Assembly (NCBI GenBank): GCA_010405405.1
Contig: MU004235.1
Location: 1,192,538 to 1,256,537 of the forward strand
Direction of reading: 5' to 3'
Length of the DNA: 64,000 nt
Origin: Microthyrium microscopicum
Taxonomy: Eukaryota; Ascomycota; Dothideomycetes; Microthyriales; Microthyriaceae
Part shown: positions 32,366 to 64,000 of the stretch, piece by piece
Position numbering within the stretch: position 1 is the stretch's first letter
How the letters are laid out: each line of letters starts with the position of its first letter
Notes under the pieces: generated by a model
Databases searched by the model: none
The model's input: the letters and a program-made list of their open reading frames with translations, nothing else
What the model was told of the DNA's origin: nothing
Position numbers and translations under genes: made by a program

Positions 32366-35251
32366 CTACATCGCATCTGACAACCCAGCCAGCCGACTTT
32401 CGAATCGTCCTGGCGTGGTCGGAAATCCAGACGCAAACGCGCCATTATTCCCAAAGCCATCCAGCTCTCCCCCTGCCTCTACACCATTCGATCCAGTTGC
32501 TCCCCATTCTCGCCACTCATCCCCCGGATTCCCAAAACTCAGAAAATCCAAGTTCGGCACCGTCGCGGGCTCTCCATTCTCACCTATCGTCGGCAGATCA
32601 CGAAGTTCCGGAAAATGAACAGAAGCTAAAGCGCTAATGTCATGGCTGTCCGCAGCATCAGCACCCATCCACGTTGCGCCGCCCGCAGACGCCGAGCTCT
32701 CTAGGATACTGCCCGTCCCACCAGCAGGCCAGCTCCCAAGCTCACTCCTCGGCGTAACAAGCACATAACTATCCGGCCTCTCCAACTCACCCCCCGCATC
32801 ACTCGCCTTCCTACCCCTCCCCACACTCGCCAGCAACGGATCAATCTGCAGATCCAAATGCGCCGGCCTCACCGCATCATTAAAACTGTGCCGCATTCCG
32901 CGGTTCAGCTGCCGTCTCTTGTTAGAGAAACTTGGCAACTCTGCGTCCATGCTGGAGCTATCTCGCCGCGCGGGTATGGCGTGTGGGATGTGGTTGTGGT
33001 GGGAGGGTGCGTGGATCTTGTGCAGCAGGTTGTCGGATGCGGGCAGACCGCGCAGTTCGGCGAGCACGGCTTGCAGGACGATGAACATGCGCTCGGCGGG
33101 CTGGTAGGTGTAGGACATGTCGTGTAGGGCGGCGGAGAGACATTCGAGGTATTGCATGTTGTTGTTGCGGTCGTTGCCGTCTTTTAGAAAGGCGAGGGCT
33201 GCTACTAGCGCGGTGGCGGCTGTGCCCTGGAGAGTTGGGTGTTAGTATTTGTTTATGCAGAAAAAGGGGGTTGGAAAAGGGGTATGGACTTACGGCGTGT
33301 TGCATGCCAGTGACGGGGATTTGTCGTCCGTTGAAACGTTGGCGGTGGTGCCAGAAGATTTTGGCGACTTTGAGAGCTTGTTTGGTGCAGACTGCGCGGG
33401 ATAGGGCGGAGAAGTGGTGTTCTGTGGAGTTTGCGTTTTCTTCGTCGGTGGCGGGTGCTTCTTCGTACATGGCGAAGGGCCGGTGGAGGAGGATTAAACA
33501 GGTGTGGTATTGTTGGTGGAGGAGGAAGAATGAAAGAGGCGCCGTTTCGACGTTCTTGTTGTTGTATTTCAGCTGTTCGGGCAGTCGAGAGTGCCACCGC
33601 CCAAATTCGCGGTCCAGCGAAGCCATGCGTAGATAGGCTTCTTGGTCGATCGCGGCGGAGTCGGACATGGAGCGGCCTTCCATGTTTTCGGTGATGCCGC
33701 CGGCGAGCTCCATGAGGTCGAGAAGAGCTTCGTAGATTTGCGTTTCGAGAGCTTTTTCTTCGCCGGCGGGCTTGCATGTTCCGAGGCGTTCGAATTGTTT
33801 GGCGAGGTGGTAGACTTCTAGATCCGCGCTCTTCATGCTTGTGGGCCGTCCAAGGAAGAGAGCCCAGTATTTGTCGTAGACTACACAGGCCCAGAGTGTC
33901 ATGCGACGGATATCAAGCTCGCGTTGACATAGGCCGGTGGAACGGGCGTCAAGATGGAGGCCAATATCAAAGGCAATTCTGTTTGCCATGCCTGCATATA
34001 GCCAGCCGACGTTATCTCGGCCTACACTGCATTCCATGTCTCCGAGGAGGAGGAGAGCGGCGACACTGGGGATGCTGCCTGGACGCTCTAATTCAAAGTC
34101 GAGCATATACTTTGCTTCTCGGTGCAAAGAGCTCTCTCTTGGGCCCACAGTGATGCGTTGCATGTCCGGACGACTGCGGTCCGCAAACCGATATCCCATG
34201 GCCAATACACAGATGTGCAGAAACGGAGAGAAGAACTGCCCACCGCCTCTCTCCTTGTCCTCTTGGAAAGCGTCATAGTGCAATACGTGGAGATATGTGT
34301 TATAGTGCTGCCAGAATAGGCCCATGAGATAATCATAGGTCTCTACTGACAATTGTCGAATGGCTTTATCGGCTCGCCGTGATTGTTCCATGGCTTCTCG
34401 CGACTCAGCAGCCGGCATGCCAAATTCAGAATGAACATGACAATTGGTTGTAGGGCCAAAATATCTCAACCTCCCATTTAGTTGATCGAAGCTAAGATGA
34501 CCTCGGGTTGAAAGCAGACGACTAACAATACCATCTTTCTTGGGAGGTGGTATCATGGAAGGGGAAGGCGCGGAGTGAGCTGAATGCGAGTCGTCCCCCT
34601 GATGAGATGGGCTATTCTCGCGGTCGAACATCAACTCATCACCTTGACTGTCTGGACTCGAATGTTGGTTTTCTGAGTGTGAACCGCCAGACGCCTTTGT
34701 TGCCACCTGCCGAGTCTTGCTGTCTTTTCGATATGTTGATGGATCCGATTCTTCAGAGCGAGCGCCATGACGTGTCATTGGAGGGTGTTGTGCTGGAGGT
34801 AGATCCTGTCCAGTGTCTTTGAGCATCGACTCGAGGACAGTGATTCGATCTGTAAGAGAGCACATGTAAGCTCGTGAGATGGGTCTATACAAGGTCAGTG
34901 TCTGCCCCGTAAGGCTTCAAAAGTTTCACTAGCCGTCGTCTTTCGTCATCGTTCTTGATAACGCATTCCACACCAGATCGTTTGCACTGGGTGCATTCTG
35001 ATTCTCCTTGTGGTACTACACACTGAGGAATATAAGCTCACGTGTCGCGTCATCATGGACTGTAAACTTACTCGGATCCTCCGGTCTCTGCATGTAGCAC
35101 AAGCAACGGAAGCCCGATGTCTTGCCTTTGTTTTTTTGCCGTTGGTAGTCGCTTGAGATTCATGTTCGTTTTGTTCTTTTGAATCAGTGTCGACTTCAGA
35201 ATTCGCGGCATTTTGCTGGGCCGCTTTTGTCGATGCGTCATCTGCCGCCAT
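32366..35251 (-). CDS. Zn2Cys6 transcription factor with fungal-specific TF domain
   Basis: Four-exon model complement(join(32366..33226,33294..34884,34934..35022,35072..35251)), 906 residues. The zinc cluster is C51-X2-C54-X6-C61-X8-C70-X2-C73-X6-C80, a full binuclear set, and the first intron (49 nt) falls exactly between R60 and C61. The second intron (34885-34933, 49 nt) appears to be a GC-AG intron (GCTAGT donor), because no GT donor keeps the frame. It joins DERR to RPISRAY and restores a linker and short coiled coil (LTDRITVLESMLKD). The fungal TF domain follows (SVETYDYLMGLFWQHYN, ALFLGRPTSMK, LLHRPFAM). The last intron is 67 nt. The C-terminus is acidic and Ser-rich, a likely activation domain. 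The target pathway is unknown. Confidence 0.9.
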
Positions 35252-36075
35252 GTTGCTCTGGCGTTGAGAGAATCAGGGGTATCAAAGGCAATTCAGGTCA
35301 TACAATAACAAAACTACAGTTACAATTATTACTGTTGTATTTGCTAAAGTTCAAAGGATATCGAAAGAAAAATGGAGGGGCAGAACGTGTAAAGATCCAC
35401 AGAATTGCCGTCTATCCAGAAGCAAGCAGCACTTTTCTAAAGAGTTTACGGAAGCAACCCAAATGCCCGGCCTACGCCCTGCTCCACGAAAGAAACCACG
35501 ATTGAAGATTTGCGGGGCCCCGCACAAACCGCTATGGCAAAACGAGCAGGCCAAGCGACCCTCGCATTGGCTAGCATGAGCATCATGGGATGGGGAAGCC
35601 TGAGCAGGTAATTTTCTAGGCGTGTCCAGCCATGTCTGGGCTGTTGTTCGTGGCATCGCCACGCGTACTAGAGTACCGTTCAGCGATGTTTAGAAGCACT
35701 ACCCCGGTTTGCGGAAGGTGGTTAGCAGCTAGCATTGAAGAAATGGTCAGGGTAGATGACCTGCAGTAGGGCCAATGATAGACCATAATGATGGAATGAT
35801 GGATTATTAGATCGAGGAGAAAAAGCAGCCAGAGTTGCTCGATGCTGTCGACGGACCGAATCAGCATCCACTGTGATTCTGCGAGGTCGGATATTGCCTG
35901 GTGAGGAGAAAGAAAGTGCAGCTGTAGTTGGAGATATCGCGAAAAAAGGGGGTGGTGATTGGCTGCGTGGCAGGGCACGCATGGCGTTCTTGACTCGATT
36001 GAGTTGCTCCACTCGTAGGAACCAGCATCCACATGATTCAAGCCTCTTTGGGACTGGGCAAGTCCAGGCTAGTTG
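35252..36075. other. Intergenic region bordering the accessory segment
   Basis: About 820 bp upstream of the Zn2Cys6 gene. Only short overlapping frames occur. It contains the minus-strand promoter of that gene and ends where the 95-bp hairpin repeat begins. Confidence 0.5.
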
Positions 36076-36170
36076 TTATCTCAGTTCTCAGACCCTAACC
36101 CTGCCCGTCCGCGGGCTCCCTCCGCAGGAGGGTCTGAGGACAACTCGGATCTTTTTAGCGTGACGCGCTT
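36076..36170. repeat. 95-bp hairpin repeat, copy 1
   Basis: Identical base for base to 36276-36370, exactly 200 bp away, although the distance includes ten unknown bases. It contains perfect inverted arms CTCAGACCCT (36087-36096) and AGGGTCTGAG (36129-36138). An inner pair CCTGC (36100-36104) / GCAGG (36124-36128) lets it fold into a long hairpin. Positions 36093-36102 read CCCTAACCCT, like ascomycete telomere repeats. The copy abuts the assembly gap. Confidence 0.85.
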
Positions 36171-36180
36171 NNNNNNNNNN
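36171..36180. other. Assembly gap (10 N)
   Basis: Ten unknown bases. The gap lies directly after the first hairpin repeat, so its true length is unknown and further repeat copies may be missing. Confidence 0.99.
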
Positions 36181-36275
36181 GGTGCTGCTCCTCTTCCCTG
36201 CTCTCCGCTTTGCAAAAGCCCAGACAGATCGCCACCATCATCGTGGCCGATGAGCTGCGTTGGGCGTGTGCTCCT

Positions 36276-36370
36276 TTATCTCAGTTCTCAGACCCTAACC
36301 CTGCCCGTCCGCGGGCTCCCTCCGCAGGAGGGTCTGAGGACAACTCGGATCTTTTTAGCGTGACGCGCTT
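36276..36370. repeat. 95-bp hairpin repeat, copy 2
   Basis: Exact second copy of 36076-36170, with hairpin arms at 36287-36296 and 36329-36338. It ends 121 bp before the start codon of the DUF6589 gene, so it could be a terminal or subterminal repeat of an element led by that gene. Confidence 0.85.
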
Positions 36371-36491
36371 CGTGGTTGTTAGTAAATGCCTATATTATTG
36401 CAACCGTGTCCTCGCCACCAATATATATATATTTTTAATAATTCTACCATCATTGCAATCACCGTTTTTTCCTCTATCGATTCTATAAATT

Positions 36492-39400
36492 ATGCCTCCC
36501 ATTAGAAGTACGCGTCGTGGAGGAGGGTCTCATAGAGATAACCCAATTTCTACACAGACCAGGCGTACCTCTCTTCGGCAACAACAGCAGCAAAGGTAGA
36601 TTTATCTCTATAATAATAAAGAGTCTATATTTATGTATCTATAGCAATACCACAACCACGACAGATCCCGCGAATACCTCAAGTAGGATTCAACATGAGC
36701 CTAACAATGCCGAACCATCAGGTCCTTCACAACCAGCGGCGACGACAACACCACGGCAGAGCCCAAACTCGGCCAAAAAAAAGCTCACTGTGATACTTAA
36801 ATGTATTCGAGATCAGAAGATGTCAATGAGATCGTTTCTTCTATCGTGGGCTGGCCAAAAGGATAGTCATAGCAAGATTGTCCTTGATAACGACAAGTAT
36901 GCCAACGTTATCGGTCGCCGTACGCTCTTGAAGGATGTTATAGAACAGTTATCAAGTGATGGGATTATGCCAGAGTATCACACTGATTCTAGACTATGGA
37001 CAGAGTTTCGCGCCCTCGCAAAACTTACAGGTTTCAACCGCTTCAGTAGTAGAGTAGACGGTACGAACATCGACTTCAAGAAAGCCATTAAGAAGATGAG
37101 GAACACTGCACCTATTTGGACAGCCTTCCTTCATAAACTTATGCGCAATCGGGACCACAAGACATACAAACGGAGTGACAAGCCGGGATGGAAGCTCATG
37201 TATATGATCACAGCAATCATTCTTCATCGGCGGAGTAGAGAGACAAATAACTATCTGGCAGCGACGCTTGGTGTCTATTTGCTCGGGTCGGGTGTGAAGA
37301 GACGGGTTATGGACTTGCTAGCAGCTCTTGGAGTATGTACTGGTTATAAGACTGCACTAAGGCATATGAAGAAGGTTTCGAGACGGGCCTTGGTATGTAA
37401 CGGTACTATGCTTAGTATTGAACATGAGATCTTGCAAGATCTTTGAACATGTTGCAAGATCTTTGCACATCTTATAACATCTTCGCACATGTTGCAAGAT
37501 CTTTGCACATCTTATAAGATCTTTGAAAATCTTAAGTTCATAACCTTGAAAGACCTTATGCATTGCTAACGCCCAATATATAGAGAAACATTAGACGACG
37601 CGCACTAAACCGTCGGGCTGTCCTATGTTACGACAACATGAACTTTGCATCTCGCAAGCGCAACGAGATAGTAGGCAATACTGCAAGTATGGCGGCCGTT
37701 ACTACTGCTATTATCGCGATCTGTCCATCCTTACCTCCAGGAGGACTAACACAAGATATGCACGATCCAACAAAGGAGTTCGACTGGAAATCAATACAGG
37801 AAGGCCCATTAGTAAAGGCCGATGGCCAAGGAGGTGAACATGTCAAAACCATTAGCCGGTGCCTTATCGTGGACGCTTTGAAACGCGGCATTCCGGATAT
37901 CATCAAACCTTGGATTGCAAAGCATAAAAAGGATAAACACTGGCCTGGCATGCCAGACATTGATATACTTGCACCACACAAGACAGAGTTTGATCAGCTC
38001 GGCGCTATCATGGAGAACGAGGGAACAACAGATGGTACTTACCGAGTACACGATGAAATCTTCTTACGACATTTCGGCTTCCCAAAACCTCCAATCAATG
38101 ATGCAGGAGACGTGGCCTCATCATCCGATATCACAGCGTCTGTTCCATCCTCTCCACCTAATTCTGGACCAGACGCCTCTTCATCTAGTGTGGCCTATTC
38201 GTCTTCTGGCCGAACGTGCAGCGGGAGTTCATCCGTCCATCATATCTCTAGCCAGGACGGATCTGACGTAGATATGTCTGAGAATGCATCCCCGTCTAGC
38301 AGCGGCCCTGAAGACAATAACCACAACAATAACCACAACAACGAGTGGATTGATGTTGAAGACGATAACGCAAGCGAGTTTGATGATAGTGAAATAGGAG
38401 AGGCGTCTGACAAAGAAGGCAGCACAGACATTGAGTCTATTAGCGACACAAGTGCGTCTCCTAATCCTGGACGCGGTATTCCTCCAGTAGATTCCGTACC
38501 AGCATCGTCATCCAGCATCTTGGGTACAGTTAGCGATGAAAACTCTACTGATGGTTCACAAGCGTTGGATCCAAGTGCCAGGATCTTCGGAAAGAGGCTG
38601 TTTCTTACCCATGGTGATCAGTTAAGCACAAAGATCAACCGCTCTATCAAGGCCGAGGCATTCAATGAAACACAACCGTACGATTCGAGGAAGTTCCTTC
38701 ATCCGGTTCCTGGGTGGTTCCATATATACATGAACTACTTCTTCCACATTGTTCGAACCCATTGGGATTCCTCCGAGGTCGATACACCGGCTCCACATTC
38801 TATTATGCACGACGTTAGTGTATGGGGACGAAGCTGCAGAAAGCGCGACAATGCCCAAACCCATCAGGTTATTCCTGTCTTGATACAAGGATTTAGTAGT
38901 AGAGTCCTGGCGTTGTTTTTGCGGAGTCTGGACCGGAAAGGTCACTGCCCTGGGCGTGTTGATGATTCATTCTTTGCCGTCCCAGAACTACTCAAATCCT
39001 GTATCAATAGGTTATCCATGGAACAGTTCGACGAGATCATTGAAGATGTCCGTCAAACAGCCTTCACGAGAGAAGCATGGGACGGGCGCCCAGATGGGAG
39101 TGATGATATCGAGTTCCGAACCATGTGCCGGTACTTGCAAGAGATTGAGTTGCTCTTAACTATGCGATATGCCCTTCGATATGGCGATATTGGACTTTTG
39201 CGCCTCCTGGTTGATCCCCTAACCATTCACTTTTATGGCACTGGTCAGAACAACTATGGGGATGAGATGCTATGGCTCAGGTGGAACTTATCTGATGTGA
39301 ATACTCCTGAACTTCAAAGGTCTATCCTGGCCTCGAGCTTAGTCAACTGGGAAGGCCGTAAGAACTCCTTTAAGCCTATGGATCTAGGACTGGAGCATTT

Positions 39401-39920
39401 GAATGGCAACTGCAGTAGAGACATGAAGTCGTTTGGTAACTCGACTCACGACGTTGAGGCAACATTCAACAGAGTCTGCCTCTGTAATACGTACATGCGT
39501 CATTTACAAGACGCATTTGCGCGTGCGTTCGTGCGCAAGGCCAGTAACAAGCATACCAACGCTAGTGCGGAGCATGATATATTCTTGTTATGCCAGAATC
39601 TGATCAAAGATGGCCTTGCGGAGTCTCGACCCCAGTCCGCAATCGAGAACTACGGCCCATATTATGACTCGCCAGATGTAAAGAGGATAGGACTTGACAA
39701 GCTTGACATCAAAGCCGAGTCTTTCAATCGCAAAACCACTATCAGGCAAGATCATATGGGAAACAACATCACAACCAGGCCTATTGACATTCTTGACCAA
39801 GACGTTGATAGTAACGACTTGGATGTACGAGAAGAGGTTGCGATGGAGGAGACCATGGGCGATGTATTGTTTGACGGAGATGATCCTGGCGCATTCGAAG
39901 CCATGGAAGTTGATTTGTAA
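36492..39920 (+). CDS. DUF6589-type protein, possible transposase
   Basis: Three-exon model join(36492..36595,36645..37392,37584..39920), 1062 residues, complete. Intron 1 (49 nt, GTAGAT...CTATAG) joins a Gln-rich start to the main frame. Intron 2 (191 nt) is long for this window and has GTATGT, TTGCTAAC and TATAG signals. Residues about 60-284 form a helical N-terminal region. Exon 3 opens with a basic helix and VLCYDNMNF (D301). An acidic, Ser/Asn/His-rich disordered insert spans about 458-610. The core that matches DUF6589 follows: LTHGDQ (D629), PVPGWFHIYMNYFFHIV, EIELLLTMRYALRYGDIGLL and DLGLEHLN (D884, E888). I identify the family from memory of its pattern. Its function is not established. 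The spaced D, D, E positions suggest an RNase-H-like nuclease (inference). TATATATATA at about 36421 precedes the start. Confidence 0.82.
37432..37560 (+). repeat. Short-word repeats inside intron 2 of the DUF6589 gene
   Basis: The intron is built from repeated words of the type TTGCAAGATCTTTGCACATC and CTTATAAGATC, three or four imperfect rounds of roughly 30 bp. AAGATCTT is palindromic. The same AAGATCTTAG/GATGTTAG words recur in the CCAAT blocks further right, which links the intron to the rest of the segment. Confidence 0.75.
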
Positions 39921-39987: not shown

Positions 39988-40075
39988 GATAGGATCTTAT
40001 CTGTTGTGATATAATCTGATTAATGTTAGAAAATGTTAGATGATGTGAGATGATGTTAGCCAATAGGATTGCGCC
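39988..40075 (+). promoter_or_regulatory. CCAAT block 1 behind the DUF6589 gene
   Basis: GATGTTAGCCAATAG lies at 40052-40066, preceded by a run of related words (AATGTTAGA, GATGATGTGAGA) from about 40020. CCAAT is the binding core of the fungal Hap complex. The block recurs seven more times up to 62.1 kb. It may be a promoter element or part of a dispersed repeat. Confidence 0.5.
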
Positions 40076-41865
40076 ATTCGATTCAGCCTTGCCGACGAAT
40101 ACTTTCTTGTTTCCGCAACATCGATTTGACAGACAACTCTGAGCGCGTCCCGGATATGGGACAGTATATTGACCTTCGTTATACGTTGAATGTGGAGGAG
40201 TTCGGAGTCGCTGCAATTTCCTATTTAAGCGTTAGTTATGTCTGTTCGTCGGTTTGGGCTCATTCTAGGTTAGCTTGAAGTATGGAGATGAGGGTAATTT
40301 TACGCCGCCAGGCAAACTAATGTTGTCCATATCGATGGTTCGAATTGACGTCTCAGCCTTGCTTGTTGTAACACAGGATTCTCCGCAAGGTGATATATGG
40401 AACGACAGATAATCGTATTCCATCTCGTGTTGGTTCCATGATCTTTTAAGTTTTGTCTAAGGATGGTTGGTGATCGGGGTTCTCCTGCCGTGGATAGAGT
40501 AGCGGCCTCCTTCAGCTTCAATATAGCCTTATCTTAGGAAGAAGTTGGTGTATTGTCCAACGGGGTTGCAGTATGGTAAGATATGCCGCGTATGCGTCTA
40601 AGGTAGCGAGGAAATCGATAGAGGCGTAGGCTGGTTCCAAGGAGGTAGTTCCTCACTTTCTGCTCCAGTGTTAGCCATGGCATTCAAGGCAATGAGGATG
40701 TCGATGTCGGTGCAGGTTGGTAGGGTGTGGTGGGAGGTTTATCGACCATTTAGTCCAGTAGTAGTCGCGACTACTACTGGGCGGTGGTGAACGTCTTAGA
40801 GAGTTTTCGAAGGAAAAAGAAGGGGAAGAAGAAGTGGTACATGTCTACAAATAGTGATGATATGTTATGCTCTCGACAGTCCAGTGAGCTTTCAGACTTT
40901 AGTAATCCTGTTGAGAAGTATATGCCTGTTACCGCATTTGGGACCTCTAGGACTTATAACGGGTGGATTTGCTTCATTTGCTCTGGTGATATTGTGAGCG
41001 TGGTCGAATCGCTCTCTCTGTTTGTCGGATCATTTCGAAGTGCTTCTGTTGCTCCTTCCGCATAATCCACTGGGTAATTGCGCAGTGGGTATCAACGGCG
41101 CTGTATATTGCGTCTTACGCTGGCCATTAACGCCAACTCGGTGGGATCGATTGCTCGGGTATCGAAGTCGTCGATTTGTAGACAGCGTAGCTGGCGCGCT
41201 GCGCTAGTCAGCAATGCTAGTTCTGTCGGGTCGATCGGCTGTATATTGGCTTCATCGCAGGGCGGGTGAACAGCGCGGCTGGCGCGCTGCAGTAACCATC
41301 AATGCCAGTTCTGTGGGGTCGATTGGCTGTATCTTGACTCCATCGTAGGGCAGGTGAAGAGCACAATTGGGTGTCTTTGGTTCTGTTGATTGTCGAAGTT
41401 GTTTTGCTAGCCTCTGTGTTAATTCTTTTAACTTCTTGCTGTATAAACATTCAGCGGGAAGCTATGGCAGCCGGAAGTAGCAAGAAGAGTGCTATTGGAG
41501 AAGTAAACATGGTGAAGTTTGAGAGTGTTCTGAGCATTGTCTGAGAAGGAAAGAGGATAGGCGAGAAGAGTAATGTGAGTGAAGCAAATGGAAAGTTATA
41601 ACCAAATAACGCACTTGCTAGCTTGCTCATCCTTTTCTTTTAGCAAGATCTTCACCTTCCTAATGTTTAGGTACTACGTATCGGTGTAACCTAGACCGCG
41701 ACCACCAATTGCCCTACGCATTGCTCCCGACTCGGTGGCAGTTCTCTCTAATTACCGAATAGTCGTTGGTGACGTTTATATATATATGTTGCCGAGGGAG
41801 GGAGCCGCGGTGGCATGTAGGCGGATGGCGGAGTAGATCCGGTGGGCCTGTTAGACGTTGGACGT
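40076..41865. other. Gene-poor stretch
   Basis: About 1.8 kb without a supportable gene. Around 41078-41360 there are two or three diverged copies of a roughly 80-100 bp stretch (GGTCGAT, then GGCTGTAT, then GCGGG or GGGCAGG), so this may be an old tandem array like those further right. Short frames such as the one at 40784-41065 lack support. Confidence 0.4.
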
Positions 41866-42686: not shown

Positions 42687-44278
42687 GTATGTAATCCTCC
42701 CAACGTAGATGCATCATCTACCTCTATGGGTCTCTTTGGGAGGGTTAGTCTGTGCAAGAGTACCTTCAGCCTTGGATGCGTCTTCTACCTCGTCTTGGCC
42801 TATTTGGAAGTACTTCCTGGAGAAGAGATAGAGGTAGAAGATGCATCTACGAGCTTAGAGGCGACGTATCCGGTACGAGCATTGATAATAGAACTGCTAA
42901 GCACTTTGGCTTGCCCTACACAGGAAGAAGTACGGCAGTGGCCCACCTGGATGGGACGTTGATCTGCCCCCTACGGAACCATGATTAGTACGGATTGTCT
43001 GAAGTGGTAGGCATAATCCCATCGTTTTTTCATACTTATTCTACATGCCTCTCGACACCGCTTATATTTCACTTCTTCTATCACTCTGGTATCTGCCACC
43101 GCTTCCCACCCACGTGTATTGCCGTTGTCCTCCAGTCGGATTACGTTGATTGAAGCCAAAGTCCTAGTTCAAGTGTGTCCCGTGCTCTACTTCTGTATTG
43201 TTGCATAACGTGTGTTCCACGTTGGGCGAAAAGATGATAGAGCCAATGTTGGATAGTGACTGTCTTCCTCGTAGATGGTTTCGATATATCGTGCGAGATG
43301 TGGACAGGGAAAGGACCGATGCCAGAGCGATAGAGGTTGTGGGGAAGTATAGAACGAATATAGGTTATGATGTGAATGCGCGACAGGTACCTAGGATTTT
43401 AGCAAGTGCTTAGCAAGATTATATAATGGAGACTTCGCGCGTAATTTGGGTTTGTCTTACCTGGCAGGAAATATGCTCTTTGAGGAGCTGTTTCCTAGCG
43501 TCCAGAACGAATGGGAATTGTGATTGTGGGTTGTTGGTAATTGTGGATTGTTGTTATCGGTAGACTGCCGGTCAGTTGGGTTGGTAGTAAGGTCGGTTTT
43601 ATTTTCGTCTGATATGATGCGATCTGATGTTGGAACTTGTTAGAAGATCTTAGCCAATAGAATGCCAGGAATGGTTCTTTACCTTGGTAGTACGCAATAC
43701 AGAGATTTTGACTTACTCTCTTGCGGAGTTTACTATAGAATATCGACTTGACTGAGGCAGGACTACCTAACAATAACTAGAATGAGTGTGAGTAGGTATA
43801 AGCTAGCGGATAATTCGGTACGTATGACATTGGAGATTCCATCATAATTATTTTGTATATAGCTGTCTAAGGCTTGGAGTTAGTAGAGAACAATAAAGCG
43901 ACGAGAGAGATCCCGACTTACAGTCAAAGCGTTAGAGCTATTCCTTGATTTATGCCCAACTTGTCGTTATGCCGGAAAAGAATATGTTATTGAGCCAGTG
44001 CTGGATGCGGTTGTATGTCTTGTGGCCGCATGTTCTTCCTTGGGTTTTGGTTTCGGGCTCATTCGCGTAAGCTGAACGAGTTGCAAATGCTTGTATATTA
44101 CTTAGTCGTTGCAATGTTCAGGTCTGCTGCACTTCCGGCCCGTCGATCTCATCCTGGCGATCGATTGTTATGCAACCGGCGTAGCTTGTTGGGACAATCA
44201 AGGCCAATGTTCGACTCACTAGCTCTAGCAGTCGAACGTTGCGTAGCTTGCGAAGTTGGTGTACTTGGCTAGGCCAGA
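42687..44278. other. Gene-poor stretch
   Basis: About 1.6 kb with only short frames on both strands (for example 43198-43413 on + and 42971-43159 on -). The sequence from about 44100 already resembles degraded units of the array that starts at 44279. One CCAAT block lies at 43645-43666. Confidence 0.4.
43645..43666 (+). promoter_or_regulatory. CCAAT block 2
   Basis: AGATCTTAGCCAATAGAATG, close to block 1, preceded by GATCTGATGTTGG. The next feature in its reading direction is the array at 44279. Confidence 0.45.
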
Positions 44279-44698
44279 ATGGTTTGCCCCAAGCCCGTCA
44301 TTCTCGCTCTGGTGGTAGAAGGTTGCGAGCTTACGAAGTTGGTGTACTTGGCTAGGCCACAATGGTTTGCCCCAAGCCCGTCATTCTCGCTCTGGTGGTG
44401 GAAGGTTGCGAGCTTGCGAAGTTGGTGTACTTGGCTGAGCCAGGAATGGTTTGCCCCAAGCCCGTCATTCTCGCTCTGGTGGTGGAAGGTTGCGAGCTTG
44501 CGAAGTTGGTGTACTTGGCTGAGCCAGGAATGGTTTGCCCCAAGCCCGTCATTCTCGCTCTGGTGGTGGAAGGTTGCGAGCTTGCGAAGTTGGTGTACTT
44601 GGCTGAGCCAGGAATGGTTTGCCCCAAGCCCGTCATTCTCGCTCTGGTGGTGGAAGGTTGCGTAGCTAGCGAAGCCGCTACAGTTGGGTGGGTGGCTA
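44279..44698. repeat. Minisatellite array A, 83-84 bp period, five units
   Basis: Units begin at 44279, 44362, 44446, 44530 and 44614 with ATGGTTTGCCCCAAGCCCGT and are nearly identical, then decay at about 44660. Because 84 is a multiple of three, both strands stay open: + reads repeats beginning MVCPKPVILALVVEGC, - reads repeats beginning MTGLGQTIPGSAKYTN, 28 residues each. Coding on either strand is unproven. Confidence 0.9.
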
Positions 44699-45429: not shown

Positions 45430-45488
45430 AGAGAGAGGTTGGAACTTCAATGTTGGAAGTGACGTCTGGAGCGTTCTACGAGGGTTGT

Positions 45489-45540
45489 CTTATATAGTAA
45501 CCCTTAAGTTTGAAGGCATCCTATTGGTCCACATCTTCGA
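45489..45540 (-). promoter_or_regulatory. CCAAT block 3 with TATA-like box
   Basis: Minus-strand GATGTGGACCAATAGGATGC at 45516-45535, with ACTATATAAG about 20 bp downstream. This is the best promoter-like arrangement among the eight blocks and points into arrays B and A. Confidence 0.5.
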
Positions 45541-47534
45541 ATATCTTCTAATATCTCGTCAGAATATGAAAGATCTATAATTAAATAGCAATAACTTCCC
45601 TAGACTGTGCCTTTCTAACTTCTCAACGCAAGTGAGATGTACTAATCTCTACTACTCTGACCGTCAGCGCCTTGTTTAAATGTAGCATACTATATCCAAG
45701 CAGCTCCGAGTCTCTTGCTTGGACCTAGGTTGTTGTAGTGGATTAAGGCGTTGGGACTAGAGTCTGCTAGATCATATCGAGTAGATGCGACTTTGATTGG
45801 TCTACATGCTGTTGTTGCTTTCGGTGGAGGTATGGCCACGTCTGAGTAGAGATGTTTCTCGATAGAGCAGTAGATGACACATTCGAACTTTTGAGGTTTC
45901 AAAGTCTGAACGATTAGAAGCGATATTAAAGCCCGGAGTAACTCTGTATCCGATGGAAGGAAGCCAACAAATCGTGTAAATTTAACCGCTTGAGCTTTTC
46001 AATGTTTTACTTCTTCTACTTCTTCTTCTTTAACACACGTCTATACAGAATATTAGCAGAAGAGTCAACAAACAACCAATATACTTTACTAAATACTCCC
46101 ATATCACAAGACAAGTCGTCCTCGCATCTTTTGGCCTTGACATCAAGCTTTACACCCTCTTCAACCTATTATGATGAGTTCAAAGACGTGCCGAATGGTG
46201 GCATATCGACCCGTCATGATAATCTAGCACAGAGCACGCGTGTTTACCAAGCAAGTCGTTGAAGTGGCATTCATGCTTCAGTACCTCCTTTGAGTGCTGC
46301 GGGAAACCCTTTAGAACTCAATCATGGTGCAGTCCTCCCGTAAAAGCTCCCGCCAGGTCTTGGAACAACATCTGTTGACGAGCTCGAAAAGTCGTCAACA
46401 GAGGCTGCGAGCTCGTTAGGGATTTGACCAGGTATCAGTGTAGCGATTGGATTTGACAAGCTCGCAAGAATATTGCCGCGAGCCATCTATCATTTTGTCT
46501 CGCGAATACTAGGGGCGGTCTCCATTAGTTACATCATTTCAATATCAGAACTAAGGACTTACAGGCATCCTGAGCATATCTCCACACCTCGATCTACTCG
46601 CAGGCACCGTGAATAGCATCACGTTCTGGACGCTATGATCCAAAGACTCCGTCTGCGTGTGAAGCACTTGCTACGTCGCAACACCGTTAGCCACAGTTTT
46701 GAGAACGGCTGCGCCAAAAGGGCCAGCGTCCAAAAACCAATTCCATGATAGATTGCAGAACTTCTTCCCGTGAACTAATGACAACAAATGTATCTTCAAT
46801 CATTGTCAGCGAGTTAAGGGATGCGCCATAGTGCACATGCTTCACTTTGCTATATCTGGGATTGTCAAGGGGGAAAGGATAAGCGTACCGTCAGCTATTG
46901 CTTAGTTCATGGCGTACAAGATTGAACGGGGCTTAGATAGGCATGCTATAGCGATTGAATTCGACCACAAAGATCTTGTCTTCAGCCATTAAGCTACAAG
47001 TAGTACTGGTTTAGTATGGAGACTCAATGTTTCTAAGTCTCTAGATTGTAACAGAGTTAGTATACAGAAAGACTGCGTTTAACATATTAGAAGGATGATA
47101 CTTACCTTAAACTCTAAACCTTAAATATTGCAACATCGATATCCATTCCTAGAGAACTAGAGCTTGCTAGTTTATAAGATAGTGCTATGATCTCGCGTTA
47201 AAGAATACTTAAATAAGAAGATGTAGCTTTCAAGAAGTTCTGTACTACAGTTCAACATAAAGAAAAGATAGAGACGGATTTGGTATACAAGTGTTTAACC
47301 ACGTAAGTGATTCAGAATATAAGTTTTCAGAATAGAAAGAAACATAGCCAACGAAGGGGCTAGCAAACGGCAATATAATTGACTGCGTAATCTGCTATCA
47401 TAACTCTAGGGGATAAGGATGTTTGGGAAGAAATAAACGATACGCGCTGCTGGGCTGCTTACCGCATTACTTAGACTTTAATGAAGATGTACCTTTGAAT
47501 ACAGCGCCAAAGAAAAAGGTAGTCCTATTGTCGT
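45541..47534. other. AT-rich gene-poor stretch
   Basis: About 2 kb, markedly more AT-rich than the left half of the window. It holds one coding-like fossil on the minus strand (listed separately) and otherwise only short frames. AT-richness with decayed genes would fit repeat-induced point mutation, but I have not measured dinucleotide bias. Confidence 0.4.
46290..46995 (-). pseudogene. Decayed coding sequence of unknown family
   Basis: Read on the minus strand, separate frames give protein-like pieces: MAEDKIFVVEFNRYSMPI from about 46990, then LDAGPFGAAVLKTVANGVAT and SLDHSVQNVMLFTVPAS around 46730-46580, then NILASLSNPIATLIPGQIPN around 46470-46410. Several in-frame stops and frame changes lie between and within them. 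I do not recognise the family. The pieces are coherent enough to suggest a once-working gene, not chance. Confidence 0.4.
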
Positions 47535-49205: not shown

Positions 49206-50782
49206 GACTTTGAGAAAGAGAATGCTTGTACCAAGTTGAGGATGCCGCTTAATAGCTGATGTTGCGATAAGACTTTTGAGTGCGTGTAAGGCTTTGGAAA
49301 GGATTATGCTGTGTGCTCGAATCTAGTGTACTGGTATGTGATGAAATCGGCTTTGCGACTTTGCCTTTGGCTTTTGAGGAAACATCGGTGCCATCTTGTG
49401 ATGGGCGGGAATATGCGTTGCGATATGAATTGGTTGTTGCTTTGGACGTAGAAGATATCAACATTGGCCAGCTTTGTAAGATAAAGAATGTGGGGATGCC
49501 AATGGCCAGAGAGATCGCGGCATAGACGATGAGGAAGTTATGTGTAAGCCGTAGGTGTGAGCGACGCTGATTATGCCTAGTCTTAAACCGTGGTTGTTGA
49601 GGTGAATTGTATCGTGATGGAAGGTATGAATGTTGAAGTTAGATGCATCAGCATGAAGTTGAAAAGACTTTGAAGTTACGATGCGATGTTAGGTATTATA
49701 CGCTAATGATTAAGTCTCGCTAAGAGCTGTTTGATTGGACTAACATCTTTGCACAACTTGAAACATTATTTAAGAACGTCCCATATTATCTAAAAGTAGT
49801 TAAGCGTATCTTGGTCTGCCCGTTCGGAGTAGAACCTTAAATCTAGCTTTGCTCAAATACTACTGGCTTCGTAACTTATTGCTACACCTTTCGCCTTTAT
49901 GATCTGGTTTCATTCTACAGACAATATACGGGTACTTAGAATCATCTTCTCTTTCGTCACAGACATAATGATTATAAGGTGAGGTTAATGACAAGCTCTA
50001 GAGTATATCTTCAAATGTTGGGTTACCTGTCAAGCCAAAGCAAGCCATTGATGTGCCAACGAGAGTAATAGTACTGCTAGTTTCTAGTCCGGGGCTCTAA
50101 GCAATTATGATTGGAGCAGATCTACAAAACAGTTCGACTTGTGGACTGATGTGGACTAGCTAGTATTCAGATGTGCAACGCACTGTCATCCCATTCTGAA
50201 GGAAAGAGATTTTGGAAATCCCTTTTTGACTTTGCAACGTCGACTTCTGAAAGCATTGCTGCTTAGCAGCAGTTTAAGACATTCTGATCGCAAGCTAGCA
50301 AGGGACTTTACTATATCATTGGATGGCTCATGTCCATTACGTTATTTGAGACATGATCTACGGCTTAGCTCTATCGCTACTGGATGTAGTCAGCCGAAAC
50401 GAGGAATGTTCGACTAGGATATGATCCACTAACATGGCTTGCATGCCGCTATGCCGATCAGGCTCCATAGATAAAGACGAGATGAGCTAAAAACAGGGAT
50501 TACCTGATCTGAATTCATGAGCGCGGCATGGTTAGTCGTAGATCGCCTATCCCGTTTATGGTTAAGAAGCACATTATCACTCGTACTCTGAGAGTACTTG
50601 TAGAGTCGTAGAATTTGGCAACGGCTCACAGGCATGTAAGCCTACCAGCGAGCGGCGACGTAGTGTCAAAGACGATGGAAATTCTCTAAGTCTGGTCTCA
50701 AAAGATTGAACAAGAATCATTATTTATCTATCTTTGGGCAAACAATACATATCCTGTAGGAAATCATTGTCAGGGTCGTTGG
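49206..50782. other. Gene-poor stretch
   Basis: About 1.6 kb between array D/E and the gene ending at 50783. It contains an inverted CCAAT block at 49724-49750. A minus-strand frame at 49249-49464 (MLISSTSKATTNSYRN) lies between that block and the array and could be a first exon, but no splice site joins it convincingly to the array. Confidence 0.35.
49724..49750 (-). promoter_or_regulatory. CCAAT block 4
   Basis: On the minus strand AAAGATGTTAGTCCAATCAA, about 260 bp upstream of the minus frame starting at 49464 and pointing into array D/E. Confidence 0.45.
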
Positions 50783-53262: not shown

Positions 53263-54339
53263 CATGATTCTTCCCAAAGCCGTGCAGAGTCTGTGTTTTT
53301 GTAACGATATACTGTTGTAGTTGTTGGCTCGCCGGATACACTTGCGGTGGTTATTGCGGGCTGGTTGGTGGTTCCTATCGGCCGAGGAAAAGATGGTATA
53401 GAGGGTAGTGGTACTCGGATCAGATAGATGTTTCAAGGGCGCGAAGAGAACAGTAGAAGTACTGGCAAGGGTATAGAATTCGAATATCAGCGCAAGAAAT
53501 AAGAGAGGCAGTTTATAAGATAGAGGACAGGAGATGTGGGGGCAAAGACTGGTAAGGATTAGAAGTTGATGCGGTATTAAAAATTAATGGGTTGGGAACT
53601 AGATAAGATATGGACTATATGATCAGAACTAAGGTAAATGATTGGCTCAGAAGTAATAACATCATCTAAGATCTTGAAAGATTGTTACATAACTCCGTTC
53701 ATCTAACCAGATTCAGTAAGATCAATATTAGCGTATGGATCTCTTACTACAACCTTCTGAATTCAAGTAACCGCTACTCCTTAATTCTCACACCAGCATT
53801 TATACAATATAAAATGTCTATACTTGTTTCACACACTATGTCCCTATTAGCCATCACACTACAACAGACAAGCCTACCAGACGGAACCACCATCTCATAG
53901 AAACACCTTCAATCACAAATAACTCCTCATCTGATTCACTATCAGTATAATCACGACGTAGAATATCCTTGCTATAAAAGGACTGGATCGCTCTGCTAAC
54001 TCCTTTTACAGATCAATCAAATAGAAACGAACCGTCTCCTCTCTCCAGCCTACTATACATCCCTCCGACCTACCACATATCCAATCTAGGAATACCTTGC
54101 ACCCTAAAACAAGAGCTTTATCATCTAGACAATCGGTATCACTACGTTACACGCAAGAAGCCTATCACGGCATCGATTTGCATATCTCTATCAGCAAAAC
54201 AACGAATCCATAATAGGTGCCGCCCTCAACCACCAGCCGGCCACCAGCCGTACATGAGATCAACCATCAAGTCGACTATCATCTCTTACATCAATGCCAA
54301 CCGCGTTCAATCACCAGCCGGCTCATTGCCCCTTCCGGA
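53263..54339. other. Gene-poor stretch
   Basis: About 1.1 kb. The left part looks like promoter and leader for a minus-strand transcript into array F. The right part has only short frames on the + strand. Confidence 0.35.
53638..53680 (-). promoter_or_regulatory. CCAAT block 5
   Basis: Minus strand: CAAGATCTTAGATGATGTTA, then after a 10-bp spacer GAGCCAATCAT. It has the same words as the other blocks but a looser spacing, and lies upstream of array F on the minus strand. Confidence 0.4.
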
Positions 54340-56420: not shown

Positions 56421-58575
56421 GGTGCTGACAATGGACGTGGTTTGAATTATGGGTTGGTTATTGGGGGTGTAGTGCTCGAAGTTGTTGTTATGGTTTGGAG
56501 TTGTGTTGGGATTTAAAGGTCGAGAGGTTCTTAGTGGGTCCCACGCCGTCGCCTAGGCAGCGTGATTGGACAACAACCACGAACCGATGATGTCAATAGC
56601 TTCCCTTCCAAAATTATGAAGACTGAAGACTGATTCATTGGGCAGTTTGGGTAGCTGGAAAAGCACGAATACGCGCGAGTGTACATCCATGGAGCTGAAT
56701 GGAAGTGTAAGTCGTTGGAACGTGATTGCAGGATGGAACTTACAGCTTTCTCGTTACCAAGCTGACAGACAGCTGAAGACTGAAATAGAATTGCCTCTCC
56801 CAGCGCGAGTAGTAGGAGGAAGCGCCAGGCAACAGCAAATTATGAAAGACAAGAGATCCTCACTTCAAAGGTTGGCGGACGAGAGTCTGCGTTGATAGCA
56901 CTGGGTGAATGAGGTCAGTTCTTGAATAGACACGGCACAGTAGAACTTACAGTCTTTCGATATGAGGCTGAACACGAGACACCATCGCAGCATATAGTAG
57001 GCAGCGCAAGTAATCAAAGCAAATGAAGATGAAGAAGTCCTCACTCTCAAAGGGAGTGAGGAACTCTAATGGAGAGTCAAAGAGTGGTGTGAAGAAGTGA
57101 TGGAGGTGTAGACAAGTGGAAGGGTTTTATAGACAACAACCTGATCAAACGGCTGCCTGCTCAGCAAGGGATGAGTAAGAGCGATCAGCGCGGCTGCGGA
57201 TTACAATGTGACCCAAGCTGAAGTGGTGAATAACTGTATGACCATCGTTGTGTGACGTGATAGCCTTTACCAGCGTGATGTTCTGAAGAAACCTTACGAT
57301 TGATGCACCATAAACGGCAACGATGTCTACGAAAATAGTCATCTTTCCGTAGCAATAGCAGTAAGTGCAGGCATCAGTGACATTGAAAGAGTACATGGAA
57401 GCTAGGAACTCGCAGTGTTGATAGAAGGACGCAGACCAGAACGGCCAAGAGCAACGACAGTTGGTAATTACGGCCAGAGCATTGATATCAGCTATTACAG
57501 CGACTGAATATATAGAAAAAGGCAAGGAAATTATAGTTCTAATAGACAGTGATCTCTACAAGAAGAAGTTGCCTTCTGCCAACATAAAGTAAGGTATGGC
57601 GAGAGCAAGGGTTTCAGGGAAGGCAAGATGATGAACACAAGTATCCAACACAAGTAACAACTTGACGGGTATCAAGGAACTTACTTATCTGATTCCATAA
57701 TTTGATATTGACACACAGCGAGTGCGCAGAGCCCGTCCAGTAGTCTCCCAGTCGACGGTAACAAGCAGCCAGTAACGGATAGACCAAATCAGTGTTGGAA
57801 GTGCTGTCTCTACGACAGAAAGACTTGGCCAAAGTCTAGCAAATAAGAATGGCGGTATTAGCATCACGGGGGATGCGTAGCAGATATAACAGTAGCTCTT
57901 CCAAAGCTGAACTATTGAGAGTGGGGGCTGCATAATCGAAGCCAAGGATGCTAGGTTGATTTTCTTAGGACATGTTGGAAGATGTTAACCAATAGAAAAG
58001 CGTGTATCTAATTAATCAGCATTCATAGCCCCTTTCCCTAACTTCATCTCATCAAATTCATATTAACTTCATTGAATCTTCATGTTAGCACTTTAATCGC
58101 ATCATATCCCTCAACTTCGAGTATACAATGACTTTCCCGACTACAACGAAGTACGGCTGCTTTGCCTCCCGAATCGATCCATACACAGTGTTGAATGCCA
58201 ACGGTCACAGTCAAACGATCACGATGAGAACAAGAACCAAGTTCATACAATTACAACAGTTTCATTTGTTACAATTATGTGGGATGCGGAGTCTTGCGAT
58301 TGGGGCCGCCCTGAAACCTACGGCCGTTTGGAAGAAGCCGGACTAAGCTCGTAGGGCCAGGTTGAACCTTACCTCGCGAAGACGAAGCGCATCGAGACGT
58401 GTCTTGCGATATCAAGCCGCACTGGACATCCGCGGTCGTTCGGTAGAGTCCTATAAACCCGCGGAGCCAGATTGAACCATCAATCGCGAAGAACAAAATG
58501 CGCTCAGGTAGTTACCGTCATCACGCATAAAGTGCGTCGAAACGCCACCCTCCACCACACCACACCCATCACCAC
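56421..58575. other. Gene-poor stretch with short minus-strand frames
   Basis: About 2.1 kb. Several short minus-strand frames have hydrophobic segments and nearby splice-like signals. One at 57945-57685 begins MASIMQPPLSIVQLWKSY. One at 57525-57145 begins MPFSIYSVAVIADINAL. One from 57050 has a plausible 48-nt intron. A + frame at 58128-58346 follows CCAAT block 6 and a T/C-rich leader. None matches a family. They may be small secreted or membrane peptides, fragments, or chance. Confidence 0.3.
57972..57996 (+). promoter_or_regulatory. CCAAT block 6
   Basis: AGATGTTAACCAATAG at 57980-57995, between a minus frame starting at 57945 and a + frame starting at 58128, so it could serve a divergent pair. 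Confidence 0.45.
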
Positions 58576-60084: not shown

Positions 60085-60337
60085 CTTCAAAAGTCCAATG
60101 GAAAGCTGACGTTTGTAAAGGGTGTATGAAGCTGATGTGTGTGTCGTTGAAGAGCTTCAAAATGTGGGGCAAGGGGAGGTTTTATCATGGCAACACTCCT
60201 ATCCAACCCGCACTCTTACGGAAACGAAGCCCAGTCAGTTTGGGCTATTGTTCCCTATTGAAGCCATCCCCAAGGACAACATCTTATTGTTCTTTCCTGA
60301 AGTGTGAAGTTCTGGCAAATTGTGCAAAGTTCTGCAA

Positions 60338-60359
60338 AGATGTTAGCCAATCATATGCC
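60338..60359 (+). promoter_or_regulatory. CCAAT block 7
   Basis: AGATGTTAGCCAATCATATG, nearly the same as blocks 1, 2 and 6. For the minus-strand gene starting at 60084 it lies upstream in reversed orientation, which Hap-type factors tolerate. Confidence 0.5.
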
Positions 60360-62059: not shown

Positions 62060-62113
62060 GGGATTATCTGATTTGATCTTAAATGATCTTGGTTGATGTT
62101 AACCAATCAGAGG
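62060..62113 (+). promoter_or_regulatory. CCAAT block 8
   Basis: GATGTTAACCAATCAG at 62095-62110, preceded by TTGATCTTAAATGATCTTGG. It lies about 100 bp beyond the stop codon of the helicase gene. Confidence 0.45.
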
Positions 62114-62211
62114 GCAGCATTTTACCAATATCAGATACAGAGTAGGCAGCCCGCCAGGAGCACGGAACTCTGCGTACCAGTATCAAAAGACACACCAAGC
62201 CAAAGCAACGA

Positions 62212-64000
62212 TCAGTCAGGAAAGGCGGTGTTATGCCTCCCCTTTTCCGTAAGAATTAATGAACGCCCGATACGCGTTTTCTGGATGTGGCTCAACCCAA
62301 CAGTTCCCTGTCGAGCTCTCTTCTCTACTTGTTTAATACTAGCGACACTCGGCGACCGGGCAGCTCTTTTACGACCAGGTGGTGTGCTTGAAGTGTCTCT
62401 TGCTTGCCCGCTGGCTCTAGCCTGGGTTGAGCCGACGGGCAACTCTGCGAGAGCACTACGACGTGTAGTTCTGCTGGTAAGCGGAGATATGGGACTGCTT
62501 GGCTCAGAATCCTCAAGAATTGTGGTATCGACCATAGCCTGCGACGCACGGCGACGAGAAGGCTTGGGAGCCAGAGAAGAGGCCAACAGTCCTGGAGCTG
62601 AACTAGACATTGGCGCAGTACTAGATGTGCCCATCGCCTGAGATGGCAAGCCGCTCTGGCGACGCCGTTTTTCGTCCCGTTCGCGCGCTGTAGCTTTGAA
62701 ACGAGCCTCGATGTCAGTCTGGTCGGCTTCTCGCCGCTGTCCAATGGCCTCATCGGTGTCCTCGGCCGAGTCAATCTCAATTACTTGTCGATTGGCAGAT
62801 TGAGATGCGCTCTGGCCTCTCGTCGCCTCTTTTTGTTTCCTGCGTTCCTGCCTCTGTTGCTCGAGTTCAGTAAACCTTGTGGGTACCAGAACGGCCAACG
62901 CCTCAAGCTTTTTAAGCAGGTCTATGCTATGGTCATCATATTCATCCCAGTCATGAGGAAGAGTTGCTTGACCCTTTAACCAATCCCATTCTATTGGGGA
63001 TGGCAGGTTGCTGAGCTTAGTAGCACTAGAGAAGATATGGGCCAACTGCCATTGAGTATGACGGCTTAGCACTGTAAAAGACGATACACCATACTTAGAC
63101 ATAGCAGAGGGTGGATGTAATCTCCGTGCCCAGTCTTGCGCCCAAGCTGTAATCTCTTCTAAAGCAAACCAGCCACGACTATTGAGAGCTGGAGGTTTCA
63201 GTTCGGCCAATTTGTCTTTGCGAGGAGCAATCTCCGGAAGTAACAGGGCTGGGTTACATCTATTACAGCAAAGTAGCGGATCTCGAGCTGGTAAAGATGG
63301 CATCTGATCTTCACCAAGAAACTTCCAGATTACGACGCGGATACAATCAGCGTTTGCCAAATCATGGAACTCCTGGGGAGTTTTCGCTCGTTGCTTAGTC
63401 TCGGGTTTGGAAAAGAACTCTATCTTCTTTGACTTCTTTTGCTTCCCTACTGTATTCTGGGTTGAAGGTCCGGCCCAAGACGAACTAGCCACGGGAGATT
63501 CTGGTTCAGTAGATTCTCGTTCTACATCAGCGAGGCTATTTTCGCTAATGTCTGATACATCGCCTGGTGTCCATACTTGCGATAGAGGATGCGATGAAGC
63601 TTGCTGGGAAAGAGCCTGCTGAGACTGATGTTGTCGTTGCATAGCGCGATGCGATGAAAGCATATGACGCGTAGCAGTTTTCCGCTGGCGCGTTATAGCC
63701 GTACTGGGCTCAGGTGCATCCTGAACAGGTCGTTCTTTTGCATATTCATTATGCAAGTAATATGGGAGCCAAATTTCGACCGTACCATGGTCACCTTCAC
63801 CTCGCGCGCCACGACCAGCGCGCTGCCAGAGATCCAGCATATCGTAACCAATCGGTATTTTCCAAATGATGATAAGCATGACACCAGGAATGTGGCAGCC
63901 AAGCCCAAGACAAGTGGTCGCTACCATAATTCGAATCTCGGAGTCGGGTTTGCAGAAAGTGGTATAGCGGCGATTTTGATCATACTTGGATGACCGAGAC
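62212..64000 (-). CDS. RecQ-like helicase, C-terminal part (cut by window edge)
   Basis: The frame is open from the window edge to a stop at 62212, giving 595 visible residues; the ATPase half lies beyond 64000. Helicase motif V reads MVATTCLGLGCHIPGV and motif VI reads LWQRAGRGARGEG, as in RecQ enzymes and the telomere-linked helicases of ascomycetes and basidiomycetes. A zinc-type LLCCNRCNP follows about 180 residues later, as in that helicase group. The rest is disordered and charged, with Ser/Gln-rich (QQALSQQASSHPLSQ) and Arg-rich segments. Telomere-linked helicases lie in subtelomeres and are thought to act in telomere maintenance by recombination, so this gene supports a subtelomeric setting. 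No intron is needed in the visible part. Confidence 0.85.
   Translation of the reverse strand, partial: SRSSKYDQNRRYTTFCKPDSEIRIMVATTCLGLGCHIPGVMLIIIWKIPIGYDMLDLWQRAGRGARGEGDHGTVEIWLPYYLHNEYAKERPVQDAPEPSTAITRQRKTATRHMLSSHRAMQRQHQSQQALSQQASSHPLSQVWTPGDVSDISENSLADVERESTEPESPVASSSWAGPSTQNTVGKQKKSKKIEFFSKPETKQRAKTPQEFHDLANADCIRVVIWKFLGEDQMPSLPARDPLLCCNRCNPALLLPEIAPRKDKLAELKPPALNSRGWFALEEITAWAQDWARRLHPPSAMSKYGVSSFTVLSRHTQWQLAHIFSSATKLSNLPSPIEWDWLKGQATLPHDWDEYDDHSIDLLKKLEALAVLVPTRFTELEQQRQERRKQKEATRGQSASQSANRQVIEIDSAEDTDEAIGQRREADQTDIEARFKATARERDEKRRRQSGLPSQAMGTSSTAPMSSSAPGLLASSLAPKPSRRRASQAMVDTTILEDSEPSSPISPLTSRTTRRSALAELPVGSTQARASGQARDTSSTPPGRKRAARSPSVASIKQVEKRARQGTVGLSHIQKTRIGRSLILTEKGRHNTAFPD

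What the first reader, a model, noticed from the sequence alone, without database searches (positions are those of the whole stretch)
36492..39920. A complete DUF6589 gene whose motifs suggest a D-D-E type transposase
Seen: a 1062-codon, three-exon gene with intact frames. Its conserved blocks place acidic residues at D301 (YDNMNF), D629 (THGDQ) and E888 (LGLEHLN), with a long disordered insert between the first two. Known: DUF6589 proteins are numerous in fungi, and to my knowledge no biochemical function is assigned. Inference: three acidic motifs in this order, an N-terminal helical region and a position directly behind hairpin repeats are what a transposase gene of a large element would show. 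If so, this would be an undescribed class of fungal mobile element.
Basis: partly seen in the sequence, partly recalled or inferred. Interest (0 to 1): 0.8.

Follow-up and report, generated by a model that had tools for sequence, protein, structure and literature searches.

The report
Intact fungal DUF6589 gene, probable transposase
An intact fungal gene of the uncharacterised DUF6589 family carries motifs like those of cut-and-paste DNA-moving enzymes, but nothing here shows that it forms, or ever formed, a mobile element.

Summary
The gene is real: three exons, 1062 aa, D301, D629 and E888 where stated, DUF6589 at 3e-62. The D-D-E reading is partly supported. Substitution probes of a recalled family consensus against the Pfam model make E (EHxN), H (FH) and D (GDQ) the most constrained of 11 chosen positions. 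D301 lies outside the Pfam domain and was not testable. The fold is untested: AlphaFold on one sequence gave pLDDT 35 and 38, and no homologue was obtained. No inverted repeats with target-site duplication were found, so an undescribed element class is not shown. The 'hairpin repeats' are two identical 95-bp copies beside a 10-N gap, probably a collapsed tandem array. Outside the given coordinates, the gene borders a minisatellite-rich domain with a helicase fragment. A 41-bp module (10-bp-phased units plus CCAAT) recurs there at seven places, plus one shifted copy, between 40 and 62 kb, with no comparable match in 1-36 kb; intron 2 holds an array of the same unit. Most likely: a DDE-like transposase gene of a catalogued but unassigned family.

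The parts
36492..36595 (+). DUF6589 gene, exon 1 (intron 1 acceptor uncertain)
36645..37392 (+). DUF6589 gene, exon 2 (residues 1-284 of exons 1-2 hold 52 K/R against 20 D/E)
37393..37583 (+). intron 2 (GTATGT...ATATAG)
37429..37533 (+). array of 10-bp-phased ATSTT units inside intron 2; same unit as in the dispersed 41-bp modules
37584..39920 (+). DUF6589 gene, exon 3 (residues 285-1062 and stop), includes the Pfam DUF6589 domain
37632..37634 (+). codon of D301 (YDNMNF), candidate first catalytic Asp
   Evidence: N-terminal to the Pfam match seen
38097..38567 (+). Ser/Asp/Asn-rich insert, residues 456-612
38616..38618 (+). codon of D629 (GDQ), candidate second catalytic Asp
   Evidence: family constraint
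38721..38723 (+). codon of H664 (PGWFH), position strongly constrained in the family model
39393..39395 (+). codon of E888 (LGLEHLN), candidate catalytic Glu
   Evidence: family constraint
36076..36370 (.). two identical 95-bp hairpin-forming copies around a 10-N gap and a 95-bp spacer; probably a collapsed 190-bp tandem array (inference)
40032..40072 (+). 41-bp phased-repeat plus CCAAT module
43626..43666 (+). 41-bp module
45515..45555 (-). 41-bp module, TATATAAG downstream on its strand
49726..49766 (-). module copy with a 1-base shift; fails the leave-one-out score (-23.2)
53633..53673 (-). 41-bp module, weakest of the seven; found by scan
57961..58001 (+). 41-bp module
60319..60359 (+). 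41-bp module, found by scan, not used to build the first matrix
62075..62115 (+). 41-bp module, about 100 bp past the 3' end of the helicase-like ORF
62215..63999 (-). 3' part of a helicase-like ORF (Helicase_C), open at the window end

Best explanation
The gene encodes a DUF6589 protein that most likely works as an RNase H-fold D-D-E DNA transposase, or descends from one. The basic N-terminal exons would bind DNA (inferred). D301, D629 and E888 would hold the two metal ions for strand cleavage and transfer (inferred). A largely helical domain would sit between H664 and E888, as in hAT- and MULE-like transposases (inferred, comparison recalled). The reading frame is intact (shown). D629, H664 and E888 sit at the strongest family constraints among the positions tested (shown for the Pfam model, through a recalled consensus). 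The gene sits at the edge of a gene-poor, minisatellite-rich domain (shown in this window). Whether it still moves anything, itself included, is not shown.
For: Intact 1062-aa frame. DUF6589 3e-62, with GDQ and EHLN inside the aligned range. Of 11 positions chosen and probed in a 127-residue family consensus (unchanged 125.6 bits), changes to Ala cost: E(EHxN) 8.3, H(FH) 8.2, D(GDQ) 6.6; then H92 4.9, N94 4.7, Q35 3.8, K98 3.7, D87 3.1, E52 1.3, E111 1.2, D74 0.5 bits. Milder swaps also cost: D->N 4.2, D->E 4.4, E->Q 7.5, E->D 6.4. The recalled strings and the window protein align without gaps from GDQ to the FH motif and share DNxN and EHxN. Strand propensity before both Asp and helix propensity at Glu. 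An animal-type string recalled from memory also hits DUF6589 (4.2e-10, over its GDQ part), which suggests a broad spread.
Against: No fold support: single-sequence models pLDDT 35.1 and 38.3; at that low confidence they place helices over D301 and D629, and two strands as well as helices between H664 and E888. No similarity to a solved transposase: one chain, mS117, at E=4.6. No TIR plus TSD pair; no second copy in the window. The gene is no composition outlier: GC3 0.484 among 0.413-0.601 for eight other ORFs, tetranucleotide correlation 0.59 to the left part and 0.62 to the right. D301 lies outside the Pfam match; a 75-residue typed string with the YDN motif alone matched no DUF6589.
Confidence: 0.57

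Rival explanations
1. It is the transposase of a known helicase-coupled fungal superfamily (AcademH, or a KolobokH-like element), and the helicase-like ORF at 62-64 kb belongs to the same element. This is a special case of the best explanation, not exclusive of it.
For: A Helicase_C ORF lies in the same domain (4.1e-07) with weak RecQ similarity. KolobokH carries a RecQ helicase and is found only in fungi; AcademH makes 9-10 bp TSDs (PMC9587614, PMC10045372, passages). Academ is reported in fungi (PMC8290104, PMC10799480, passages).
Against: The helicase ORF is about 22 kb away on the other strand; RecQ matches are weak (E 0.011 and 0.029, beside RhlB 0.031) and no solved structure matches it at E up to 0.1. 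No TIR with a 9-10 bp TSD in the ranges searched. Kolobok motifs as I recall them do not resemble YDN/GDQ. The paper defining AcademH is not held, so no sequence comparison was made.
Confidence: 0.2
2. The gene is a passive resident of a subtelomeric or accessory domain; its DUF6589 protein is a host or domesticated protein, perhaps an RNase H-like nuclease, with no mobility of its own.
For: The domain right of the gene has minisatellites with 80-125 bp units, positive GC skew in 21 of 24 one-kb bins from 40001 and a helicase-like ORF. RecQ helicases are telomere-linked in several fungi (PMC4522978, passages). Single copy in the window; no TIR plus TSD; no composition outlier.
Against: No telomere repeat array among the 23 tandem-repeat rows. 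Catalytic-type motifs under strong family constraint fit a nucleic-acid enzyme. Family expansion in mushrooms and animals (recalled) is typical of mobile genes.
Confidence: 0.25
3. The three acidic residues are coincidental motifs of an unrelated fold.
For: No structure; D301 untested; low-confidence models show no RNase H core.
Against: Two of the three, plus the His, are the top constraints among 11 positions probed, with strand-Asp, strand-Asp, helix-Glu propensity.
Confidence: 0.15

Closest known systems
DUF6589 (Pfam PF20231)
   Same: C-terminal part of the domain matched to its end, 3e-62; GDQ, FH and EHxN motifs present.
   Different: This member has a 157-aa Ser/Asp-rich insert and an intron array of 10-bp units, whose spread in the family is not known; Pfam assigns no function.
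DDE superfamilies with a His after the second Asp (hAT, P, MuDR, Kolobok, Dada)
   Same: Order D ... D ... H ... E, long stretch between H and E (signature from PMC3706591, PMC9587614, passages).
   Different: GWFH instead of C/DxxH; no sequence similarity detected; fold not shown.
AcademH / KolobokH helicase-coupled fungal transposons
   Same: Fungal; a transposase candidate and a helicase-like ORF in one region.
   Different: The helicase is a separate ORF about 22 kb away on the opposite strand; no TIR with 9-10 bp TSD found.
Starship giant elements
   Same: Candidate mobility gene at one edge of a large accessory-like domain, transcribed into it.
   Different: DUF6589 is not the tyrosine recombinase captain (recalled: DUF3435); no element ends found.
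Telomere-linked RecQ helicase regions
   Same: Helicase-like ORF, minisatellites, few genes (PMC4522978, passages).
   Different: No telomere repeat array in the window; only a helicase C-terminal part is seen.

Membership tests
DUF6589 (PF20231) | score above the Pfam cut-off of 27 bits | tested here: met
   211.1 bits, 3e-62
DDE/RNase H transposases | RNase H fold | tested here: inconclusive
   single-sequence models pLDDT 35.1 and 38.3, no usable fold
DDE/RNase H transposases | three invariant acidic residues in order | tested here: inconclusive
   D629 and E888 positions strongly constrained in the Pfam model; D301 outside the match
[quoted passage not shown]
   no pair with TIR score plus TSD length of 16 or more between 33500-36480 and 39925-63900; the N gap, weaker ends and anything past 64 kb unsearched
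hAT/P/MuDR/Kolobok/Dada group | C/DxxH after the second Asp | tested here: not met
   GWFH at 661-664: His present and its position constrained, G at -3
AcademH | helicase encoded with the transposase; 9-10 bp TSD | tested here: inconclusive
   helicase-like ORF in the region but 22 kb off and antisense; no TSD found
AcademH | Academ transposase sequence | not testable with these tools
   paper not held; no Academ sequence at hand
Starship | tyrosine-recombinase captain | tested here: not met
   exon 3 matches only DUF6589 and the exon 1-2 frame only two sub-threshold families; Starship definition recalled, papers seen as a listing
subtelomeric helicase region | adjacent telomere repeats | tested here: not met
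   no telomeric array among 23 tandem-repeat rows; the chromosome end may lie outside the window

The most novel reading that the evidence does not exclude
DUF6589 is the transposase of an undescribed giant fungal DDE element. It sits at the left edge and drives a region of at least 26 kb that carries a helicase and cysteine-motif genes. The 41-bp phased modules scattered through that region, and the matching array in the gene's own intron, are its binding sites, in the manner of subterminal transposase-binding arrays.
Probability: 0.09. Interest if true: 0.85.

Novelty: new member of a known kind. Interest (0 to 1): 0.42.

Why it matters
DUF6589 has no assigned function in the Pfam copy used, and no paper of the searched open library uses the name. 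If it is a DDE transposase family, many fungal and (recalled) animal 'unknown' genes become mobile-element genes, and genome annotations would change. The three-residue test is simple and decisive once an alignment and a model are at hand. The dispersed 41-bp module beside this gene is a concrete cis-element to test for binding.

Tried and rejected
Homologue searches that found nothing: viral contigs, 7 of 8 scans used. One of them used a pattern one base short. The three matches are chance. Genome contigs, 1 scan, 63 stretches. tblastn of the window protein and the two recalled strings against all 67 loci held then: none for the window protein at E up to 1; the strings' best were 0.099 and 0.37. 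Pfam PF20231 in two viral records: none, but none of the 14 control genomes rang either, so this shows nothing. No metagenome scan was allowed.

Structure: exon 3 and residues 612-925 folded without an alignment; confidence too low, so no fold search was run.

Mobile-element ends: TIR+TSD search negative; its direct-repeat control was empty too, so the threshold is strict. Considered the 41-bp modules as TIRs: shared words of 6 or more bases at matching offsets were 0 against 1.5 expected in one orientation and 4 against 2.3 in the other. Considered the modules as promoters of the visible genes: only the one at 45.5 kb has a TATA box that I could see, and no consistent gene start follows the others (read by eye).

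Against the module claim: the site at 49.7 kb fails in strict register (-23.2); a looser three-unit pattern also matches at 25885 and the first matrix scores 16.2 bits at 25864. The matrix was built from six of the eight sites; one search is the fair leave-one-out test.

Tetranucleotide composition did not place the gene clearly with either side. DUF3716 and KolobokH paper searches gave listings only. Papers: PMC10799480, PMC10045372, PMC4522978, PMC8290104, PMC12210899, PMC3706591, PMC9587614 as passages; PMC12730594 as outline and abstract; the rest as listings.

Full report
OBSERVATION. The window holds an intact plus-strand gene at 36492-39920. Exons 36492-36595, 36645-37392 and 37584-39920 give 1062 aa; the four combinations that keep the frame differ only at intron 1. 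D301, D629 and E888 lie in YDNMNF, THGDQ and LGLEHLN as stated. Exon 3 matches only DUF6589 in Pfam, 3e-62, and no NCBIfam model. No second copy lies in the window: all other tblastn matches have E of 5.3 or more. Between them lie a 10-N gap and exactly 95 further bases. That layout is what an assembler may leave when a 190-bp tandem array is collapsed; this last step is inference.

DOES THE FAMILY LOOK CATALYTIC? No homologue could be fetched, since the collections on hand are prokaryotic and viral: 7 viral scans and 1 genome scan gave none. I therefore used the Pfam model as a probe. Changing single residues and reading the loss ranks 11 positions that I chose: E of EHxN 8.3 bits, H of FH 8.2, D of GDQ 6.6; the other eight lose 0.5 to 4.9. 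These three correspond to E888, H664 and D629 here; GDQL and PGxFH are 28 residues apart in the window and in both recalled strings. The motif with D301 is N-terminal to the Pfam match, which in a test of residues 285-440 begins at residue 361. So its conservation rests on recalled sequences only, and a typed string with that motif alone matched no DUF6589.

FOLD. Two AlphaFold runs without an alignment are useless as models (pLDDT 35.1 and 38.3). For what little they say, they put helices over D301 and D629, against the RNase H reading, and helices plus two strands between H664 and E888. No solved transposase is similar by sequence: the single match up to E=10 is mS117 at 4.6. The six residues before D301 and before D629 rank at the 96th and 90th percentile of strand propensity in this protein, and the eight around E888 at the 92nd percentile of helix propensity. 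That is the RNase H order, but weak evidence.

MOBILITY. No pair of ends with TIR score plus TSD length of 16 or more was found between 33500-36480 and 39925-63900. The gap, weaker ends and the sequence past 64 kb remain unsearched. No related strain is available, so presence or absence could not be tested. The gene is not a composition outlier (GC3 0.484 among 0.413-0.601 in eight other ORFs; tetranucleotide correlation 0.59 left, 0.62 right).

SURROUNDINGS. Left of 36 kb the recognised genes are ordinary fungal ones: Gti1/Pac2, ferric reductase, MFS transporter, P-type phospholipid ATPase, TRP-like channel, a fungal transcription-factor domain; some ORFs there match nothing. Right of the gene lie minisatellites with units of 80-125 bp, six stretches totalling 3202 bp of 24000, each G-richer on the plus strand. 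GC skew is positive in 21 of 24 one-kb bins from 40001. The TA/AT index is 0.94-1.09 at 40-48 kb, against at most 0.84 in the other 2-kb blocks. Three ORFs carry CxxC motifs, two with sub-threshold DUF3716 matches. At the end is a Helicase_C ORF (4.1e-07) with weak RecQ similarity and no PDB match at E up to 0.1. Ten ORFs, one of them the third cysteine ORF, gave no Pfam match at 0.05; two repeat-derived ORFs had only sub-threshold matches.

A DISPERSED MODULE. Intron 2 of the gene is largely an array of 10-bp units of the form ATSTTNNNNN. The spaced pattern ATSTTN5ATSTT occurs 19 times in the window: 12 in that array and 7 elsewhere, all 7 between 40.0 and 62.1 kb, against a mean of 0.75 (maximum 3) in 60 simulated windows of the same local dinucleotide make-up. 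A looser three-unit pattern adds one match at 25885. Most outside sites run into a CCAAT box and share about 41 bp, consensus nATnTTAGAnGATnTTnGAAGATGTTAnCCAATnnnATnnC. Leave-one-out scoring gives 27.3-41.4 bits for 7 of 8 sites, while the best score in 1-36000 is 10.6-15.0; the eighth has a one-base shift and fails at -23.2. With the first matrix, the best left-hand score was 16.2 at 25864. The modules do not behave as TIRs with TSDs. They may be regulatory or protein-binding sites; that DUF6589 binds them is a guess.

MECHANISM AND KNOWN KINDS. [quoted passage not shown] passages). Here the His is kept but the residue three before it is Gly, so it is not filed in that group. Helicase-coupled fungal transposons exist (KolobokH, PMC9587614; AcademH with 9-10 bp duplications, PMC10045372), and a link to them is open. 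RecQ helicases near telomeres are reported in several fungi (PMC4522978, passages), which would make the region ordinary.

LITERATURE. One search for the name DUF6589 returned 0 papers. A search for PF20231, IPR046496 or GDQLT returned 1 unrelated paper. Nothing outside this open library, and no supplement, was searched.

VERDICT. Observation confirmed. The D-D-E transposase reading is plausible and has support for two of three residues, but the fold, the first Asp and any mobility are unproven. An undescribed class of mobile element is not shown.

Noticed in passing
40032-62115 (seven sites plus one shifted copy) and 37429-37533: A 41-bp module of 10-bp-phased GATNTT units plus CCAAT recurs through the right part of the window with no comparable match in 1-36 kb; the bare unit array sits in intron 2 of the DUF6589 gene.
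   Followed up: partly
41182-53255: Six minisatellite stretches with units of 80-125 bp, all G-richer on the plus strand; none of that unit size left of 36 kb in the tandem-repeat list.
   Followed up: partly
36076-36370: Ten-N gap flanked by identical 95-bp copies with a 95-bp spacer, suggesting a collapsed 190-bp tandem array just upstream of the gene.
   Followed up: partly
62215-63999 (-): Helicase-like ORF open at the window end, Helicase_C 4.1e-07, weak RecQ similarity; possible telomere-linked or transposon helicase.
   Followed up: partly
50783-52633, 55330-56010, 58576-59823 (-): Three ORFs with CxxC-type cysteine clusters; two have sub-threshold DUF3716 matches, little similarity to one another.
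   Followed up: partly
40001-48000: TA/AT ratio raised (0.94-1.09) compared with the rest of the window, a mild RIP-like shift in gene-poor DNA.
   Followed up: no
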